Of a stretch of 64,000 nucleotides of DNA, positions 22,101 to 56,445 are shown one piece after another. How positions within the stretch are numbered: the stretch's first letter is position 1; every line of letters starts with the position of its first letter. Below the pieces are notes generated by a model. It was given only the letters and a program-made list of their open reading frames with translations. It was not told the origin of the DNA and did not search any database. Source of the stretch: Pseudoxanthomonas sp. J35 (GTDB taxonomy: Bacteria; Pseudomonadota; Gammaproteobacteria; Xanthomonadales; Xanthomonadaceae); NCBI RefSeq assembly GCF_000513995.1, contig NZ_AZVB01000022.1, positions 5,001-69,000 on the forward strand, read 5' to 3'. A program made the position numbers and the translations under genes.

Positions 22101-22145
22101 CTGCAACTTCCCGTGCGCGCCGGGAAAACCGCCGCGGCGCGCTAC
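22101..22145 (-). repeat. GTAG-headed REP hairpin downstream of the RAYT gene
   Basis: Read on the minus strand it begins GTAG at 22145-22142 (overlapping the RAYT stop codon), then a stem TTCCCG/CGGGAA (22126-22121 with 22113-22108, 7-base loop) and the tail G-T-T-G-C-A-G-G-C-G. The copy at 22677-22710 has the same plan and the opposite orientation. It also lies between convergent genes. Confidence 0.65.
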
Positions 22146-22612
22146 ACCCAGGCGCAGTCCCAGAACGGGTAGTCGCGGATGTCATCCACCAGGCGCGCGC
22201 GCAGCGGCTCGGCGATGATGTAGCGGGCCACGGTACGCAGGTCGTCCTCGCGGCGCAGCTGCCGGTCGTGGAAGGCCGGTTCCCATAACGGGCCGGCGCG
22301 CGACAGCACGCGGTTCACCTGCACGCCGGTGACCGACTTCATCCGCTGCACCACCTTCTCCAGTGGATCGCGCTGCCCGACCTGCAGCAGCCAGTGCGCC
22401 TGGTCGGGCATCAGCACCCAGGCCAGCAGCGTGGCGTCGCCGTGCGCCAGCGGCTGGCGGAAAGCGCGCACCGCCTCGCAACCGACATGGAAGTTCGAGA
22501 ACCAGGCCTGGCGGTCGCGGGTGGCGACGCTGACGTGGTAGGCCTGCCCGGGGATGGACAGCCCGCGCTGCCGCACCACGCGCAATCCCTGGAACCGGTC
22601 CTCGGTATGCAT
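22142..22612 (-). CDS. REP-associated tyrosine transposase (RAYT), metal-site variant
   Basis: Y1-transposase fold, about 156 residues from the ATG at 22612 (in-frame ATGs at 22618 and 22627 are possible). The family segment M-P-x-H-x-H is here M-P-D-Q-A-H-W-L-L: the first metal-binding His of the HUH motif is Gln. The catalytic Tyr region A-R-Y-I-I-A-E-P-L-R-A is intact. RAYTs nick single-stranded REP DNA at GTAG. The gene is flanked by two inverted GTAG hairpins, as in known RAYT loci. The His-to-Gln change suggests reduced or altered nicking. Confidence 0.85.
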   Translation of the reverse strand: MHTEDRFQGLRVVRQRGLSIPGQAYHVSVATRDRQAWFSNFHVGCEAVRAFRQPLAHGDATLLAWVLMPDQAHWLLQVGQRDPLEKVVQRMKSVTGVQVNRVLSRAGPLWEPAFHDRQLRREDDLRTVARYIIAEPLRARLVDDIRDYPFWDCAWV

Positions 22613-22654
22613 GTCCATGGACCGCATCCTTGCAAGCGGCCCGTGGGCGGAACA

Positions 22655-22668
22655 GCGGACTGGTCCGC
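22655..22668. repeat. Palindrome GCGGAC-TG-GTCCGC upstream of the RAYT gene
   Basis: A perfect inverted repeat with 6-base arms sits just before the GTAG element at 22677 and shares the outer C-A-G-C-G-G-A and T-C-C-G-C-T-G segments, so alternative hairpins can form. It lies in the RAYT leader. Confidence 0.45.
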
Positions 22669-22676
22669 AATCCGCT

Positions 22677-22710
22677 GTAGGAATTTTCCACGGCGGAAAG
22701 TTGCGGGCGA
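22677..22710 (+). repeat. GTAG-headed REP hairpin upstream of the RAYT gene
   Basis: GTAG at 22677-22680, stem TTTCC/GGAAA (22685-22689 with 22695-22699, 5-base loop), then G-T-T-G-C-G-G-G-C-G. It is the inverted partner of the 22101-22145 element; the two GTAG ends face the RAYT gene. Confidence 0.65.
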
Positions 22711-22750
22711 AAAGGTCCACCGCGAGCACAGGGCGCACGGCCCCGCAGGC

Positions 22751-23772: not shown

Positions 23773-25662
23773 TCAGGCCACCCGGCTGCGACGCAGGCGT
23801 TCCAGATGCACCAGCAGCAGCGAGATCGCCGCCGGTGTCATGCCGGGGATGCGTTGGGCCTGCCCGATCGTCTGCGGCCGCACCCGCTCCAGTTTCTGCT
23901 GCACTTCCGCGGACAGGCCGCGTACGGCGGCGTAGTCGAAGTCCGCGGGGATGGCGGTGTCCTCGTGGCGCTGCTGGCGCGCGATCTCGTCGCGCTGGCG
24001 GTCGAGGTAGCCGGCGTACTTCACCGCGATCTCGACCTGCTCGGCCACCTGCGCGTCGTCCACGCCCGGGCCCAGCGCCGGCACCCGCATCAGCGCGGCA
24101 TAGCCGAGCTCCGGGCGCTTGATCAGGTCCAGCGCGCTGGTCTCGCGGCTCACCGCCACGCCCAGCACCGCCTCGACCTCGCGGCCGATGGCGTTGGCCG
24201 GCGTCGCCCACAGCGCGCGCAGGCGCGCGGTCTCGCGCTCGATCGCCTCGCGCTTGGCCTCGAAGCGCGACCAGCGCGCGTCGTCGACCACGCCCAGCTC
24301 GCGGCCGCGCGGGGTCAGGCGCAGGTCGGCGTTGTCTTCGCGCAGCTGCAGCCGGTACTCGGCGCGGCTGGTGAACATGCGGTACGGCTCGTTGGTGCCG
24401 TGGGTGATCAGGTCGTCGACCAGCACGCCCAGGTAGGCCTCGTCGCGGCGCGGCGCCCAGCCTTCCTGGTCGCGTACGTGGCGGGCGGCGTTGATGCCGG
24501 CCAGCAGCCCCTGCGCGGCCGCCTCCTCATAGCCGGTGGTGCCGTTGATCTGCCCGGCGAAGAACAGGCCGGACACGGCCTTGGTCTCCAGCGTGGCCTT
24601 CAGCCCACGCGGGTCGAAGAAGTCGTATTCGATCGCGTAGCCGGGACGGGTGATGTGCGCGTTCCCGAAGCCGCGGATCGAACGCACCAGCTCCAGCTGC
24701 ACGTCGAACGGCAGCGATGTGGAGATGCCGTTGGGATAGATCTCCACCACGTCCAGCCCCTCCGGCTCGACGAAGATCTGGTGGCTGGGCTTGTCGGCGA
24801 AGCGCACCACCTTGTCCTCGATCGAGGGGCAGTAGCGCGGGCCGATGCCCTCGATCTGGCCGGTGTACAGCGGCGAGCGGTCCAGCGCGCCGCGGATGAT
24901 CTCGTGGGTGCGCTCGGTGGTGTGGGTGATCCAGCACGAAACCTGGCGCGGGTGGTCGGCCACGTCGCCGAGGAACGACATCACCGGCATCGGGTCGTCG
25001 CCGGACTGCTCGTCCATCACCGCGTAGTCGAGCGTGCGCCCGTCGATGCGCGGCGGGGTGCCGGTCTTGAGCCGGTCCACCACGAACGGGCGCTCGCGCA
25101 GGCGCGCGGCCAGGGTGGCCGACGGCGGGTCGCCCATGCGCCCGGCGGCGTAGGTGGTCGGACCGATGTGGACCTTGCCGGCGAGGAACGTACCGGCGGT
25201 CAGGACCACGGCCGGCGCGTCGAAGCGCAGGCCGGTCTGGGTGATCGCGCCGCGCACGGCGTCGCCCTCGATCACGAGGTCGTCGACCGCCGCCTGGAAC
25301 ACGGTCAGGTTGGGCTGGTTCTCGACCATGCGCCGGATCGCCGCACGGTACAGCGCGCGGTCGGCCTGGCAGCGGGTCGCGCGCACCGCCGGGCCCTTGG
25401 ACGCGTTGAGCGTGCGCCACTGGATGCCGGCCAGGTCGGCGGCGCGGGCCATGGCTCCGCCGAGGGCGTCGATCTCCTTGACCAGGTGGCCCTTGCCGAT
25501 GCCGCCGATTGCCGGGTTGCAGCTCATCGCGCCCACGGTCTCGATGTTGTGGGTCAGCAGCAGGGTGCGCGCGCCGGAGCGGGCCGAGGCCAGCGCGGCT
25601 TCGGTGCCGGCGTGGCCGCCGCCGATCACGATGACGTCGTACTGGTGGAAGGAGCGGGTCAT
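23773..25662 (-). CDS. mnmG: tRNA uridine-5-carboxymethylaminomethyl(34) synthesis enzyme
   Basis: 629 residues from the ATG at 25662, the usual MnmG/GidA length; the longer frame upstream is rejected because it leaves the family N-terminus [22 protein letters not shown]-binding [22 protein letters not shown] and the catalytic-region C-W-I-T-H-T are present. With MnmE it modifies U34 of several tRNAs. Its TAGAAT -10 candidate (25711-25706) overlaps the region of the divergent sigma54-like promoter. Confidence 0.97.
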
Positions 25663-25732: not shown

Positions 25733-25748
25733 TTGGCACGCTTCCTGC
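25733..25748 (+). promoter_or_regulatory. Sigma54 (RpoN)-type promoter
   Basis: TTGGCACG-CTTC-CTGC: the invariant -24 GG (25735-25736) and -12 GC (25747-25748) are separated by exactly 10 bases, and the match to TGGCACG-N4-TTGC differs at one base. It reads away from mnmG into a gene-free stretch that ends in a strong terminator. No enhancer-binding site was identified. Confidence 0.55.
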
Positions 25749-25759
25749 GATAGCCATCA

Positions 25760-25879
25760 CGTGCACCCATCGCGGCAATGCGTCGGGGGCGCGGGCTGGA
25801 ATTGGAACAGGGGCCAGCCACGCGCGCGATGGGGAAGCCGAGGGGCCGGCAGTCGGGGGACTGCCGGCCCCGTTTTTTT
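25760..25879 (+). ncRNA. Candidate small RNA driven by the sigma54-like promoter
   Basis: About 120 bases from the predicted start (12 bases after the -12 GC) to the T-run. No plausible coding frame ends inside it: the frame from the ATG at 25778 runs straight through the terminator. The 5' part holds unpaired GGA-containing stretches (CTGGAATTGGAACAG, GATGGGGAAG), and the 3' end is a 13-bp terminator stem. A stand-alone RNA is inferred from promoter plus terminator without a gene; no homologue is known to me. Confidence 0.5.
25842..25879 (+). terminator. Strong intrinsic terminator of the candidate small RNA
   Basis: A 13-bp perfect stem (25842-25854 with 25859-25871), GGGG loop, then G and seven T's (25873-25879). 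It is the best intrinsic terminator seen in the window. Confidence 0.85.
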
Positions 25880-25912: not shown

Positions 25913-25947
25913 AAAAAGCGACAGCCCGGCCAGGGGACCGGGCTGTC
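25913..25947 (-). terminator. Intrinsic terminator facing the small-RNA terminator
   Basis: On the minus strand GACAGCCCGG (25947-25938) pairs with CCGGGCTGTC (25929-25920) around an 8-base loop, followed by GC and five T's (25917-25913). It ends transcripts coming leftward from the lipoprotein gene, whose stop is 156 bases upstream. Confidence 0.75.
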
Positions 25948-26102
25948 TTGGGGGCGCCGATGTCCGACAGGGCCGGAACAGGGGGGATCCAGATTTCCCT
26001 GCCGGACATCGACGTGGACTTGCCGGGCAGGTCACAACCTGACGTGCCCTGTCACGTGCGGGCTAAGCTTGCGTCCACCGTCCCGGCAACGCAAGCGCTT
26101 TT
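25948..26102 (-). ncRNA. Structured 3' region of the lipoprotein transcript, possible 3'-derived small RNA
   Basis: Between the lipoprotein stop and the terminator are two further inverted repeats: 8-base arms at 26089-26096 and 26067-26074 directly after the stop, and 12-base arms at 25997-26008 and 25961-25972 whose single mismatch is a G-U pair only on the minus-strand RNA. A TTGCCG...TTAGCC pair 17 bases apart could be an internal promoter. The asymmetry of the wobble pair favours a minus-strand RNA function. Confidence 0.4.
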
Positions 26103-26900
26103 TCAGGGCTCATTCGTGTCGCGCGTCCCACTACGCTGCGGTCGCGAGTTGCCACTGGGCGCCGGGCGCGGGGCCGGGGCACTGCGCGGGGCCGCATCGC
26201 TGCGCGGCGCCTGGCGGAACTCGCCGCCGCTGCGGGGCTGCGGCTGCGGCGAGACCGGACGCGTCGCCACCGGCGCGACGTTGCCGCCATTGCCCGGGAA
26301 ACGGCGGCGGACCGCGGTGTCGGTACCACCCTGCGGCGGATCGACCCGGTAACCGGTGCCGGTCGGCGGCACCGGTCGCATGCCGCCACCCGTGTACGGG
26401 CCCGGGCCACCGCCCATCCCCGGCTGCGGAGCGGCGATGCTGCCGGTTCCCGGCTGCGGGCGCCGCCGCGGCTGGTCCTCCTCGCTGCCGCGGCGCAGCC
26501 GCTCCAGATCGCGCCATGGCGCGCGGTTGAGCGGGGGCGGCGTATGGCCGGCCGTCGGCGGCGGCCGGTCGGGGCGGCCGTCATGGTCGCCGCCGTGGTG
26601 GCCGGGCCCCGGCGGAGCCGGCGCATGCGGGTGGTAGTGCGGCGGACGGTAGTAGTAACCGGGATAGCCGTACCCGTAGTAATAGGAGGGATGGCCGTAG
26701 CCCAGGCCGAACGACCAGCCGGGCCGGTAGCGGTAGGCGTAGGGCACGCCGTATCCGTAACCGTAGCTGCCGTAGACCGTGCCGTACCCGGAGTAGTCGT
26801 AACCGGTGTAGTAACCGCCGCCATCGTCGACGTACCCGTAGGTGGTGCAGCCGGCCAGGGCCAGCGCACAGGCCAGGCCGGTAAACACTCGCAGTTTCAT
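26103..26900 (-). CDS. Tyr/Gly/Pro-rich lipoprotein
   Basis: 265 residues from the ATG at 26900, preceded by a G-rich Shine-Dalgarno. The signal ends in the lipobox L-A-G-C, so Cys is lipidated. Residues about 20-90 are an extreme Tyr/Gly stretch (Y-G-Y-G-Y and P-Y-A-Y-R-Y types), followed by a His/Pro segment and a long Pro/Arg/Gly tail. Such composition suggests an unstructured envelope-surface protein. No enzymatic domain is visible. Long frames extending to 27479 are rejected. Confidence 0.75.
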   Translation of the reverse strand: MKLRVFTGLACALALAGCTTYGYVDDGGGYYTGYDYSGYGTVYGSYGYGYGVPYAYRYRPGWSFGLGYGHPSYYYGYGYPGYYYRPPHYHPHAPAPPGPGHHGGDHDGRPDRPPPTAGHTPPPLNRAPWRDLERLRRGSEEDQPRRRPQPGTGSIAAPQPGMGGGPGPYTGGGMRPVPPTGTGYRVDPPQGGTDTAVRRRFPGNGGNVAPVATRPVSPQPQPRSGGEFRQAPRSDAAPRSAPAPRPAPSGNSRPQRSGTRDTNEP

Positions 26901-27035
26901 GGCGGTTCCCCCCCTCGGGCTTGGATGGCCAGCTTCGTGGCGGCGCTTTGAATCCGTGCTTAACCCGGCCGGGTGCCCCGTCGTTTCGCCACACGATGAC
27001 GGGTCCGGCCGTGGTCGATACGTTAACCTTGGCCC

Positions 27036-27992
27036 ATGCCAGTCGACCTTCCCGCTGCCGACGACGTCCTCGCCGCCGCTGCCCGGATCGCCGGCCATGC
27101 CAGCGTCACCCCCGTGCTGCGTTCGCGCGTGCTCGACGGCATGGCCGGCTGCGAACTGCACTTCAAGGCCGAACACCTGCAGCGCGGCGGCGCCTTCAAG
27201 TTCCGCGGCGCCTGCAATGCCGTGTGGTCGCTTTCCGACGGGGAGGCCGCACGCGGCGTGGTCACCCATTCCTCGGGCAACCATGGCGCGGCGCTGGCGC
27301 TGGCCGCGCGCAGCCGCGGTATTCCCTGCCACGTGGTCGTGCCCGAAGGCGCGGTGGCAGCCAAGCTGGCCAACATCGAACGCCATGGCGCGACCGTGTG
27401 GCGCTGCGAAGCCACCCTCGCCGCGCGCGAGGCGACCTGTGCGCGGATCCAGGCGGAGACGGGCGCGCAGCTGGTCCATCCCTACGCCGATGCGCGGGTG
27501 ATCGCCGGCCAGGGCACGGCCACGGTCGAGCTGGTCGGCCAGGCCGGCGCGCTGGACACCCTCGTGGTCCCGGTGGGCGGTGGAGGCCTGGCCGCGGGCA
27601 CCGCGCTGGCGCTGGCCACGGTCGCGCCGCGCTGCCGGCTGGTGCTGGCCGAACCGGCCGGCGCCGACGACACCGCCCGTTCGCTGGCCGCCGGCGAGCG
27701 CCAGACCGACCTGGTCCCCGATACCGTCTGCGACGGCCTGCGTGCCAGCCTCGGCGCGCCCAACTTCGCCCTGTTGCGGGCCTGGGGCACCGAGGCGGTG
27801 GTGGTCGACGACGCCGCCACGATCGCGGCGATGCGGCTGGCCTGGCAGGTGCTCAAGCAGGTCGTCGAACCGTCCTCGGCGATCGCCCTGGCGGCGGTGC
27901 TGGCACAGCCGGCGCGCTTCGCCGGCCAGCGCGTCGGCGTGGTCTTCACCGGCGGCAACGTCGACCTGGGGGCGTTGCCGTGGCGCGGCTGA
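27036..27992 (+). CDS. PLP-dependent threonine/serine dehydratase or serine racemase-like enzyme
   Basis: 318 residues, fold-type II PLP enzyme. The Schiff-base Lys lies in G-A-F-K-F-R-G-A (about residue 54); H-S-S-G-N-H-G-A-A-L-A holds the substrate loop, and V-G-G-G-G-L-A-A-G binds the PLP phosphate. No regulatory ACT domain follows, as in catabolic dehydratases and serine racemases. It probably deaminates threonine or serine. The downstream gene overlaps it by 13 bases. Confidence 0.88.
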   Translation: MPVDLPAADDVLAAAARIAGHASVTPVLRSRVLDGMAGCELHFKAEHLQRGGAFKFRGACNAVWSLSDGEAARGVVTHSSGNHGAALALAARSRGIPCHVVVPEGAVAAKLANIERHGATVWRCEATLAAREATCARIQAETGAQLVHPYADARVIAGQGTATVELVGQAGALDTLVVPVGGGGLAAGTALALATVAPRCRLVLAEPAGADDTARSLAAGERQTDLVPDTVCDGLRASLGAPNFALLRAWGTEAVVVDDAATIAAMRLAWQVLKQVVEPSSAIALAAVLAQPARFAGQRVGVVFTGGNVDLGALPWRG

Positions 27993-28594
27993 GCCGCGGC
28001 CGCAAGGCGCGGCGCGGCTTCTTCGGCTGGCTGTGGCGGCTGGCGCTGCTGGCGCTGCTGTGGCTTGCCGGCGTGGCCGCCTGGATCGTCTGGGTCGGCC
28101 AGCGCGACCAGGCCACGCGCGCCGACGCGATCATCGTGCTCGGCGCCGCCGCGTACCACAAGAATCCCTCGCCCGTGTTCCGCGAGCGCATCCGCCACGG
28201 CCTGGACCTGTACCGCCGCGGCTATGCGCCGGTGCTGGTGTTCACCGGCGGCTACGGCAACGGCGCGCCGTTCGCCGAATCGCAGGTGGCGCGCCGCTAC
28301 GCGCTGCAGCAGGGCATTCCCGAGTCGGCGATCCTGATCGAATCGGCCTCGCGCAACACCCGCGAGAACCTGTTGCAGGCGCGCATGCTGATGCAGCAGA
28401 ACGACCTGCACCGGGTCATCGTGGTCAGCGATCCGCTGCACATGGCACGCGCGCTGCGGCTGTCGCGGCGGCTGGGCATCGACGCGGTCGGCTCGCCCAC
28501 GCCCAGCACCCGCTTCCGCACGGTGCAGACGCAGTGGCGCTTCCTGCTGCAGGAGGTCTACTTCTTCCACCGCGACCTGGTGCTGCGCGACTGA
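27980..28594 (+). CDS. DUF218 (YdcF/ElyC/SanA-like) membrane protein
   Basis: 204 residues from a GTG at 27980 inside the end of the dehydratase gene. A basic N-terminus precedes one membrane helix (about 15-38). The DUF218 core follows: A-D-A-I-I-V-L-G-A-A, F-R-E-R-I-R-H-G-L-D-L-Y, V-F-T-G-G-Y-G-N-G and V-V-S-D-P-L-H-M-A-R-A. Relatives influence envelope integrity and lipid-carrier homeostasis. The exact function is unknown. Confidence 0.85.
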   Translation: MARLSRGRKARRGFFGWLWRLALLALLWLAGVAAWIVWVGQRDQATRADAIIVLGAAAYHKNPSPVFRERIRHGLDLYRRGYAPVLVFTGGYGNGAPFAESQVARRYALQQGIPESAILIESASRNTRENLLQARMLMQQNDLHRVIVVSDPLHMARALRLSRRLGIDAVGSPTPSTRFRTVQTQWRFLLQEVYFFHRDLVLRD

Positions 28595-54729: not shown

Positions 54730-56445
54730 ATGCACGCCCCCCGTATCCCGACGGCCCTGTCCCTGCTGCTGGCCTTCGCCCCGGCCATCGCGCTGGCAGG
54801 GCCTGCCACCGCCATCGGCCAGCTGCGCGCCAGCGCGGCGGATCCGGCGAAGGTCGCGTTCACCGCGACGGTCAGCGCCGACTTCCGTGAAGGCCTCGGC
54901 GGCGTGTTCGTGCAGGACGGCGGCGACGGCGACGGCGACCCGGCCACGCCCGACGGCCTGTTCGTGCGCCCCGCCGAAGGCGTGCAGTTCCCCGACGGCG
55001 TGGCCGCCGGGCGCGAGTGCCGCTTCCACGGCCGGCTGGTCGAGGAGAAGCGCGGCGGCAGCCGTGCCACGGTGCTGCTGGCCGAACGCATCGACCGCTG
55101 CCGCCCCGCCCAGCCGGTCACGGCGCTCACGCTGGACGCGCTGCCGCAGGACTGGGCCGCGCTGGACGGGATGCGCGTGCGCATCGAGGCGCCGCTGTTC
55201 GTGGCCGGCACCGACGCGCTGGCGCGCTACGGCGAGCTGGCGGTGTCCTTCGACGGGCGCCTGTGGCAGCCCAGCGAACTGGCCCGCCCGGGCACGCCGG
55301 AACATGCTGGACTGGCCGCGCGCAACGCGCGCGTGCGCCTGCTGCTGGACGACGGCAGCCAGGCGCGCGATCCACGGCAGGTGCCCTATCTCGACGACGG
55401 CGCGACGCCGCGCGTCGGCGACGTGGTGCTGGGCGCCGAAGGCGTGGTCGAACAGCGCCACGGCAGCTGGCGCCTGCAGCTGGACCGCCCGCTGCGCTTC
55501 GAAGCGGCGCAGCGCCCGGGGCCGCCGCAGGTGCCCGGGAACGTCCGCGTGGCCGCCTTCAACCTGGAGAACCTGTTCAACGGCGACGGCCGCGGCGGCG
55601 GTTTCCCGACCCCGCGCGGCGCGAAGACGGAGCAGGCGTTCGAGGCACAGCTGGCCAAGCTGGTCGCCACCGTGCACGGGCTCGATCCGGACGTGGCCGC
55701 GCTGATGGAACTGGAGAACGACGGCTACGGCGAGGATTCGAGCATCGCCCGGCTGGTGCGCGAGCTCAACGCCGGAGGCGCGCAGTGGCGCTTCGTCGAC
55801 GCCGGTCGCGGCCCGGGCGCGGACACGATCCGCGTCGGCATCATCTACCGCGCAGACCGCCTGGTCCCGCGCGGCAAGCCGGCGGTGCTGGAAGGCGGCC
55901 CGTTCGGCGAACGCAGCCGCGTGCCGCTGGCCCAGGCGTTCAGGCGCAAGGGCGGCGGCAGGGAATTCGTCGTCGTCGCCAACCACTTCAAGTCCAAGGG
56001 CTGCAGCGAGGCGACCGGCGACAACGCCGACCGCAAGGACGGGCAGGGCTGCTGGAACGCGCTGCGCCTGGATTCAGCGCAGCGCCTGCACGCCTGGCTG
56101 CAGTCGGCGCCGCTGGGCAAGGGGCGCGAACGCGTGGTGATCCTCGGCGACTTCAACGCCTACGCGATGGAGGACCCGGTGCACTGGCTGCGCGAGGACG
56201 CCGGCTGGACCGACGCCTTCGCCGCCGCCGGCGTCGAACGTCCGTGGAGCTACGTATACCAGGGCCTCAGCGGACGCCTGGACCACGCCCTGCTGAGCCC
56301 GGCGCTGGTGCCGCACCTGCGCGGCGCGGCCGAATGGCACGTCAACGCCGACGAGCCGGACGACGCCGGCTACGCGGGACGCAACGTCCCCGGGCCGTGG
56401 CGCAGCTCGGACCATGATCCGTTGCTGCTGGGGTTCGACCTCTGA
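54730..56445 (+). CDS. Secreted ExeM/NucH-like endonuclease/exonuclease/phosphatase-family nuclease
   Basis: 571 residues from the ATG at 54730 (AGGA upstream), signal peptide MHAPRIPTALSLLLAFAPAIALA. An N-terminal OB-fold-like region (about 30-270) precedes the EEP nuclease domain with F-N-L-E-N-L-F, A-L-M-E-L-E-N, N-H-F-K-S-K, L-G-D-F-N-A-Y and S-S-D-H-D-P-L-L-L-G-F. Relatives are extracellular DNases that feed on or remodel DNA in biofilms. An ATG at 54715 is also in frame. Confidence 0.88.
   Translation: MHAPRIPTALSLLLAFAPAIALAGPATAIGQLRASAADPAKVAFTATVSADFREGLGGVFVQDGGDGDGDPATPDGLFVRPAEGVQFPDGVAAGRECRFHGRLVEEKRGGSRATVLLAERIDRCRPAQPVTALTLDALPQDWAALDGMRVRIEAPLFVAGTDALARYGELAVSFDGRLWQPSELARPGTPEHAGLAARNARVRLLLDDGSQARDPRQVPYLDDGATPRVGDVVLGAEGVVEQRHGSWRLQLDRPLRFEAAQRPGPPQVPGNVRVAAFNLENLFNGDGRGGGFPTPRGAKTEQAFEAQLAKLVATVHGLDPDVAALMELENDGYGEDSSIARLVRELNAGGAQWRFVDAGRGPGADTIRVGIIYRADRLVPRGKPAVLEGGPFGERSRVPLAQAFRRKGGGREFVVVANHFKSKGCSEATGDNADRKDGQGCWNALRLDSAQRLHAWLQSAPLGKGRERVVILGDFNAYAMEDPVHWLREDAGWTDAFAAAGVERPWSYVYQGLSGRLDHALLSPALVPHLRGAAEWHVNADEPDDAGYAGRNVPGPWRSSDHDPLLLGFDL

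What the first reader, a model, noticed from the sequence alone, without database searches (positions are those of the whole stretch)
25733..25879. Candidate sigma54-driven small RNA divergent from mnmG
A GG-N10-GC sigma54 element, one base off TGGCACG-N4-TTGC, points away from mnmG into a coding-free stretch and is followed about 100 bases later by a 13-bp terminator stem with seven T's. Promoter plus terminator with no gene between is the classic sign of a small RNA. Sigma54 control would tie it to nitrogen, carbon or motility signals through an enhancer-binding protein. A match this good to the -24/-12 pattern is expected about once by chance in 64 kb, so the terminator and the empty interval carry much of the weight.
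Basis: partly seen in the sequence, partly recalled or inferred. Interest (0 to 1): 0.72.

Follow-up and report, generated by a model that had tools for sequence, protein, structure and literature searches.

The report
Sigma54 small RNA and its partner
The spot holds a small RNA already known from this bacterial family (asX1), apparently switched on by the special sigma54 promoter, and next to it lies a second, apparently uncatalogued RNA whose exposed loop matches it letter for letter, which suggests a built-in RNA on/off pair.

Summary
The interval is a real small RNA gene, but a known one: window 25764-25877 (+) matches Rfam asX1 (RF02235), 110.2 bits against a cut-off of 70. The sigma54 element (25734-25748) is not chance: GG-N10-GC stands 12-16 nt before the asX1 model start in 116 of 116 fetched Xanthomonadaceae loci. 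A site scoring 10-11 of 11 lies in the same place in 78 of 81 order-wide loci, against 27 of 1620 shuffles.

Beyond the finding, an RNA without an Rfam match lies opposite asX1 (about 26059-25913, minus). It has its own promoter (86 of 104 loci; at most 3 in shuffles) and a covarying hairpin (13 of 18 pairs with double changes). Its C-rich loop, GGAUCCCCCCUGUUCC, is complementary to the asX1 loop GGAACAGGGG: 9-10 nt in 110 of 111 loci. In four distant loci the sigma54 RNA is little more than an 8-12-nt anti-loop plus a terminator.

Best reading: a sigma54-switched antagonist RNA for a constitutive C-loop RNA, conserved across the order. Expression, sigma54 dependence, pairing in cells and targets are untested.

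The parts
25734..25748 (+). sigma54 -24/-12 promoter element TGGCACGCTTCCTGC of asX1
   Evidence: position; GG-N10-GC in 116 of 116 loci; 78 of 81 order-wide loci score 10-11 of 11
25760..25879 (+). asX1 small RNA (Rfam RF02235); start inferred 12 nt after the GC; the Rfam model matches 25764-25877
   Evidence: 110.2 bits; terminator
25798..25813 (+). asX1 loop GGAATTGGAACAGGGG; its last 10 letters are complementary to the loop of the opposite RNA
25842..25879 (+). asX1 intrinsic terminator, 13-pair stem and T run
26066..26094 (-). sigma70-like promoter of the second RNA: TTGCGT (26094-26089), 17 nt, CAAGCT (26071-26066)
   Evidence: 86 of 104 loci with TTGNNN-N15-19-YANNCT; 200 shuffles mean 0.4, maximum 3
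25913..26059 (-). second small RNA without Rfam match, convergent with asX1 and co-oriented with mnmG (start inferred from the -10)
26025..26051 (-). hairpin 1 of the second RNA (TGAC...GCGTC...GAC motif; hairpin judged by eye and by single-sequence folding, not by a covariation count)
25956..26013 (-). hairpin 2 of the second RNA with the C-rich apical loop
   Evidence: 13 of 18 pairs with compensatory changes
25975..25990 (-). apical sequence GGATCCCCCCTGTTCC; CCCCTGTTCC is the exact complement of asX1 GGAACAGGGG
25913..25947 (-). intrinsic terminator of the second RNA
   Evidence: 12 pairs, then GCTTTTTGCG; position
23773..25662 (-). mnmG (gidA) coding region, the usual neighbour
   Evidence: frame; start codon; synteny

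Best explanation
The locus encodes a two-RNA switch. RNA 1 is asX1, transcribed from a sigma54 promoter and therefore, by the general rule for sigma54, only when some enhancer-binding protein is active. RNA 2, without an Rfam match, is transcribed on the other strand from a sigma70-like promoter and presents a C-rich loop (UCCCCCCUGU closed by GGA/UCC), of the kind that pairs with G-rich ribosome-binding sites. When the sigma54 signal is on, asX1 is made and its loop GGAACAGGGG pairs with CCCCUGUUCC of RNA 2. This blocks or titrates RNA 2 and relieves whatever it represses. Shown by sequence comparison: asX1 membership, the conserved sigma54 element, the structure, strand and promoter of RNA 2, and the conserved complementarity. 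Inferred: sigma54 dependence in the cell, pairing in the cell, the direction of control (asX1 as antagonist rather than the reverse), and the target mRNAs, which are unknown.
For: asX1: 110.2 bits; 16 of 17 same-genus genomes; 352 of 395 family genomes. Sigma54: 116 of 116; 78 of 81 order-wide loci at 10-11 of 11 against 27 of 1620 shuffles; rpoN domain PF04552 in 38 of 40 genomes searched, two copies in the window's genome. RNA 2: 365 of 395 family genomes; within 700 nt of asX1 in 114 of 116 family loci, 112 on the opposite strand and 2 on the same strand; 95.0% of cells paired, 13 of 18 pairs with double changes, 0 of 500 shuffles as high on any of five measures; with partners slid, pairing falls to 31-58%; many G-U cells in the minus sense, which fixes the strand; more stable fold in the minus sense in 95 of 108 loci; own promoter in 86 of 104 loci. 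Pairing: 9-10 nt in 110 of 111 family loci against 31 of 1110 shuffles with 9 or more; CAGGGG is the commonest hexamer of the sigma54 RNA, in 71 of 81 order-wide loci; the next is in 46; in L141, L142, L216 and L227 the sigma54 RNA is very short and carries CAGGGGGAATC, the same, CAGGGGGAATCC and CAGGGGGA, i.e. 11, 11, 12 and 8 nt. Independence: in L048 and L049 asX1 is inverted relative to RNA 2 and mnmG, yet promoter and loops are kept; in L130 the pair stands without mnmG.
Against: No transcript data were seen for RNA 2, and no rpoN-mutant data for either RNA. Order-wide pairing is short in most loci: 76 of 81 have 6 nt or more, but 609 of 1620 shuffles do too; 49 of 81 have 7 or more against 174 of 1620. 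Five of 81 loci have under 6 nt (L144, L168, L181, L200, L217). Three of 81 order-wide sigma54 sites score under 10, among them L216, one of the short-RNA examples (9 of 11). A terminator after RNA 2 passes a strict test in only 12 of 65 family loci (mirror control 1 of 65) and 7 of 76 scan loci (mirror control 9 of 76), so in many genomes RNA 2 may run on into mnmG. 43 of 395 family genomes lack an asX1 hit and 30 of 395 lack an RNA 2 hit. In L013 (genome G010, 87% complete) asX1 and its promoter are present but RNA 2 is absent from the 397 nt that follow and from the genome search. rpoN is kept in all but two of the 40 genomes checked, which include many without the pair, so losing the pair does not follow losing rpoN. 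In the predicted folds part of each seed is paired. No convincing mRNA target was found. The loci are related, so per-locus counts are not independent.
Confidence: 0.7

Rival explanations
1. asX1 is a sigma54-driven small RNA that acts on its own mRNA targets or sequesters a protein such as RsmA/CsrA through its GGA-bearing loop; the match to the opposite RNA is incidental or secondary.
For: The asX1 loop carries GGA in a hairpin. Most order-wide loci share only 6-7 complementary nt (62 of 81). Four loci keep a sigma54 site of 10 or 11 but have under 6 complementary nt (L168, L181, L200, L217). L013 has asX1 without RNA 2 nearby.
Against: The commonest hexamer of the sigma54 RNA across the order is exactly the complement of the loop core (71 of 81). 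The shortest sigma54 RNAs lack the GGAAC part and keep CAGGGGGA(ATC) instead. GGA alone would not call for CAGGGG.
Confidence: 0.14
2. The second element is a leader or attenuator of mnmG rather than a free RNA, and asX1 is a cis-antisense RNA that controls mnmG.
For: The element lies upstream of mnmG on the same strand in 117 of 121 family loci with at least 700 nt after it and in 75 of 80 scan loci, the other five ending within about 430 nt. Strict terminators after it are uncommon.
Against: The window and several other loci have a strong terminator right after it. mnmG has -10-like sequence near its start codon (read by eye). The pair occurs without mnmG in L130. asX1 lies on the mnmG strand in L048 and L049.
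Confidence: 0.08
3. The reverse direction: RNA 2 is the sponge and asX1 is the working regulator.
For: Complementarity is symmetric. asX1 is the one with the conditional promoter.
Against: C-rich loops are a common seed for ribosome-binding sites (recalled; [quoted passage not shown]
Confidence: 0.08

Closest known systems
Rfam asX1 (RF02235), Xanthomonadaceae sRNA
   Same: Full-length match over the gathering cut-off with the family structure. asX1 expression is reported in Xylella (PMC12189769, passages) and X. campestris (PMC4652430, passages).
   Different: The sigma54 promoter and the partner RNA are not mentioned in the passages I saw. asX1-like RNAs extend beyond the reach of the Rfam model.
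CJnc190/CJnc180 of Campylobacter jejuni (abstract and section list of PMC8687705)
   Same: Two RNAs of one locus; [quoted passage not shown]
   Different: There the antagonist is described as cis-encoded and antisense. Here the predicted RNAs do not overlap and match only through loops; the antagonist has a sigma54-type promoter.
sigma54-driven sRNAs: GlmY (listing abstract of PMC7073468), CrcZ/CrcY (passage of PMC8657755)
   Same: GlmY is a decoy sRNA; CrcZ and CrcY are transcribed from RpoN-dependent promoters and antagonise Hfq-Crc. (That GlmY is sigma54-driven is recalled.)
   Different: GlmY and CrcZ work on proteins (RapZ, Hfq-Crc). asX1 would work on an RNA by base pairing. No sequence kinship was tested.
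C-rich-loop sRNAs such as sX13 of Xanthomonas (loop type recalled; PMC3771888 searched by terms only)
   Same: RNA 2 has an exposed run of C in a hairpin loop.
   Different: RNA 2 matches no Rfam family at its cut-off, sX13 included.

Membership tests
Rfam asX1 (RF02235) | covariance-model score at or above the gathering cut-off | tested here: met
   110.2 bits against 70, model positions 1-115 of 115
Rfam asX1 (RF02235) | expressed as a discrete RNA | not testable with these tools
   reported for relatives only (passages of PMC12189769 and PMC4652430)
sigma54-dependent small RNA | -24/-12 element (GG-N10-GC) at the right distance from the RNA start, conserved | tested here: met
   116 of 116 loci; 78 of 81 order-wide
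sigma54-dependent small RNA | rpoN in the same genome | tested here: met
   two copies in the window's genome
sigma54-dependent small RNA | enhancer sites for a known enhancer-binding protein | tested here: inconclusive
   dyad scan over 116 loci confounded by mnmG coding conservation and high G+C
sigma54-dependent small RNA | loss of the RNA in an rpoN mutant | not testable with these tools
   no such data seen
sRNA sponge / anti-sRNA | conserved complementarity to the seed of another sRNA | tested here: met
   9-10 nt in 110 of 111 family loci; CAGGGG in 71 of 81 order-wide; five of 81 have under 6 nt
sRNA sponge / anti-sRNA | changes level or activity of the other sRNA | not testable with these tools
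   needs mutants
cis-encoded antisense RNA of mnmG | overlap with the mnmG transcript on the opposite strand, conserved | tested here: inconclusive
   opposite orientation is the rule, but asX1 is on the mnmG strand in L048 and L049 and the pair lacks mnmG in L130; transcript overlap not known
C-rich-loop trans-acting sRNA (for RNA 2) | structured RNA with own promoter and exposed C-rich loop | tested here: met
C-rich-loop trans-acting sRNA (for RNA 2) | terminator after the RNA, conserved | tested here: inconclusive
   present in the window; strict test 12 of 65 against mirror 1, and 7 of 76 against mirror 9
C-rich-loop trans-acting sRNA (for RNA 2) | pairs with ribosome-binding sites of mRNAs | not tested
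   only an exact 11-mer screen for anti-loop sites was run

The most novel reading that the evidence does not exclude
An order-wide RNA-RNA switch in Lysobacterales: a sigma54-controlled RNA whose conserved task is to neutralise a neighbouring, uncatalogued C-loop regulatory RNA by loop-loop pairing. In a few distant lineages it is reduced to a sigma54 promoter, an 8-12-nt anti-loop and a terminator. This would couple an enhancer-binding-protein signal directly to release of a whole set of mRNAs.
Probability: 0.6. Interest if true: 0.75.

Novelty: new variant of a known kind. Interest (0 to 1): 0.62.

Why it matters
asX1 is widespread in the family (352 of 395 genomes), and I met no function or control for it in the passages that I could read. 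A conserved sigma54 promoter says when to look for it, and a matching RNA next door says what it probably acts on. If right, it is a compact, testable case of a sigma54-switched RNA that silences another RNA, kept across the order that includes Dyella, Luteibacter, Rhodanobacter and Arenimonas as well as Xanthomonas and Xylella (asX1 reports).

Tried and rejected
Chance promoter: rejected. Second element as a plus-strand copy of asX1: rejected, because its G-U pairs and greater stability lie on the minus strand and its promoter reads that way. Element restricted to the window's genus: rejected. Element spread beyond the order: in 369 class genomes the exact 16-mer occurs in 6, of which 5 are in the order and 1 (G866) is outside it and was not followed up; this test misses diverged copies. 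Enhancer sites: the dyad scan over 116 loci was inconclusive; the top dyad ACGA-N5-TCGT lies in mnmG coding sequence as judged by eye. Target search: GGAACAGGGGG occurs 53 times in 17 same-genus genomes against 14 for the reversed pattern, 16 of the 53 being RNA 2 itself by position; of the other 37 sites I compared the 22 that were given as loci, and only three flank pairs were alike; none convinced me.

Corrections and rows dropped: mis-registered 8 of 116 promoters (a nearby decoy scored higher); one search corrects this. The 65 sequences of the hairpin alignment were hand-picked for diversity from 116 (66 chosen, L110 missed by the pattern). In one search, 5 of 116 family loci were left out because the loop pattern was not found in them, 7 of 88 loci because mnmG or the loop pattern was not found, 12 of 116 because hairpin 1 was not recognised. 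One search stopped with a script error after its first two patterns; redid the promoter test. The controls are single-letter shuffles, those keep dinucleotides. One search scores TGGCAYG-N4-YTGC, TGGCACG-N4-TTGC.

Literature: none of the listed titles, abstract starts or passages that I saw deals with sigma54 control of asX1 or with RNA 2. These lists are capped (for example 25 of 106 papers, 12 of 122, 20 of 36, 15 of 43). The founding asX1 paper (Schmidtke 2012, PMC3300014) is not held, so prior mention there cannot be excluded. PMC8657755, PMC3744752, PMC7694677, PMC7280030 and PMC3771888 were only searched by terms; in PMC7280030 (RpoN1/RpoN2 of X. campestris) the terms sRNA, small RNA, noncoding and asX had no hits in the main text.

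Full report
What was claimed and what is there. All three are present: TGGCACGCTTCCTGC at 25734-25748 and a 13-pair terminator with seven T at 25842-25879. The interval is a known small RNA: 25764-25877 matches Rfam asX1, RF02235, at 110.2 bits over all 115 model positions, the only Rfam match in the 64 kb at curated cut-offs. The RNA itself is therefore not new.

The sigma54 promoter is real by comparison. I fetched 116 asX1 loci from Xanthomonadaceae: the same genus, one other genus in depth, and one or a few representatives of other genera with hits. All 116 have GG-N10-GC 12-16 nt before the asX1 model start. The nine fixed motif positions average 1.96 bits of information, against 0.32 for positions -20 to -2 and 0.47 for the 14 nt after the motif. 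The sigma54 domain of rpoN is found in 38 of 40 genomes searched and twice in the window's genome. G049 lacks rpoN, and neither asX1 nor the second RNA was found in it; the other genome without an rpoN hit, G029, is 82% complete and has the second RNA. No enhancer site could be assigned.

A second RNA. The asX1 loop letters GGAACAGGG recur downstream on the same strand, in 109 of 116 loci at first look. On the minus strand this is a hairpin with the apical sequence GGATCCCCCCTGTTCC, whose GGA and CCCCCTGTTCC parts hardly vary. Allowing two errors, it lies within 700 nt of asX1 in 114 of 116 loci: 112 on the opposite strand and 2 on the same strand. The two without it are L043, where the contig ends and the genome has it on another contig, and L013, where the following 397 nt lack it and so does the search of that 87%-complete genome. 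In 65 aligned loci the hairpin has 18 pairs, 13 with changes on both sides; 95.0% of cells pair, and none of 500 shuffles is as high on any of the five measures. Its many G-U pairs exist only in the minus sense, and that sense folds more stably in 95 of 108 loci. A promoter of the form TTGNNN-N15-19-YANNCT stands before it in 86 of 104 loci (200 shuffles: mean 0.4, maximum 3). In the window it is followed by a 12-pair terminator with five T. No Rfam family reaches its cut-off there. A model built from it finds it in 365 of 395 family genomes, usually once.

The pair is order-wide. The records with taxon names are Lysobacterales genera or families (Dyella, Luteibacter, Rhodanobacter, Frateuria, Tahibacter, Dokdonella, Arenimonas and others). 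Some metagenome records are labelled only Proteobacteria, Pseudomonadota or Gammaproteobacteria, and one bears the label Eremiobacteraeota. In 75 of the 80 it lies upstream of mnmG on the same strand; in the other five the locus ends within about 430 nt of it. In 81 of 88 loci the interval up to mnmG could be cut out; in 78 of these 81 the opposite strand carries a sigma54 site scoring 10 or 11 of 11 (27 of 1620 shuffles), followed by asX1-like sequence in most as read by eye. So asX1-like RNAs reach further than the Rfam model: in a 151-genome order sample all 24 Rfam matches were in the window's own family (strict filters).

The loops match. In the family, 110 of 111 loci have 9-10 consecutive nucleotides of asX1 complementary to their own second-RNA loop (31 of 1110 shuffles reach 9). 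Order-wide the match is shorter: 49 of 81 have 7 or more (174 of 1620 shuffles), and 5 of 81 have fewer than 6. Yet the commonest hexamer of the sigma54 RNA across the order is CAGGGG, in 71 of 81 loci (the next is in 46), the exact complement of the loop core CCCCUG. In L141, L142, L216 and L227 the sigma54 RNA is very short, and what it keeps is CAGGGGGAATC, CAGGGGGAATC, CAGGGGGAATCC and CAGGGGGA, in a different register on the same loop, followed by a hairpin and a T run as read by eye (the L216 promoter scores 9 of 11). This is the best hint that pairing with the neighbour is its job.

The two genes move independently. In L048 and L049 asX1 is inverted relative to the second RNA and mnmG, with promoter and loop kept. 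In L130 the pair is followed by an erpA-like gene (judged from its sequence) rather than mnmG. mnmG is therefore a usual neighbour and probably not the object; 117 of 121 family loci with at least 700 nt after the loop have it, so an mnmG role is not excluded.

Mechanism. Most likely the second RNA is a constitutive C-loop regulator and asX1 a sigma54-switched antagonist. Shown by comparison: family membership, promoters, structure, strand and complementarity. Not shown: expression here, sigma54 dependence, pairing in cells, direction of control, targets. A simple target screen gave only weak leads.

Against this reading: strict terminators after the second RNA are found in 12 of 65 family loci (mirror control 1) and 7 of 76 scan loci (mirror control 9), so it may read into mnmG in many genomes. 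43 of 395 family genomes lack an asX1 hit, although 6 of 12 such genomes that have the second RNA show a sigma54 site with an asX1-like loop. L013 has asX1 without the second RNA. Loci are related, so counts overstate independence.

Novelty. asX1 is known. I found no account of its sigma54 promoter or of the second RNA in what I saw of the held literature (capped lists), and the founding paper is not held. The closest arrangement that I read about is CJnc190/CJnc180 (abstract of PMC8687705).

Noticed in passing
window 28443-28457 (+): The only other sigma54-like site in the window at 10 of 11 with GG and GC intact (TGGCACGCGCGCTGC); it lies inside ORFs and is probably chance.
   Followed up: no
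L048 and L049 (genus g3): asX1 with its promoter is inverted between the second RNA and mnmG; L116 of the same genus has the usual orientation.
   Followed up: partly
L130: The RNA pair is followed by an erpA-like gene rather than mnmG.
   Followed up: partly
L013 1614-1898: asX1 and its promoter are intact, but the second RNA is missing; an imperfect inverted repeat fills the stretch (read by eye), perhaps an insertion or assembly end.
   Followed up: no
L168, L181, L200, L217: Loci that keep a sigma54 site of 10-11 but whose RNA matches the C-rich loop by under 6 nt; they may use another contact.
   Followed up: no
L268 around 1501 and L276: An 11-nt anti-loop site GGAACAGGGGG just after an L-serine dehydratase-like gene, conserved between two genomes of the genus; possible target leader.
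   Followed up: partly
L271 and L287: Anti-loop 11-mer about 50 nt upstream of a small Cys/His-rich protein start in two closely related genomes.
   Followed up: no
window 22142-22738 (-): ORF that looks like a REP-associated transposase (RAYT), judged by eye from its sequence.
   Followed up: no
window 55431-55518 (+): tRNA-Ala (GGC), the only tRNA gene found in the window.
   Followed up: no
window 26103-27479 (-): The ORF upstream of the second RNA contains a lipoprotein-like start and Tyr/Gly-rich repeats; a similar gene lies upstream in L130 (by eye).
   Followed up: no
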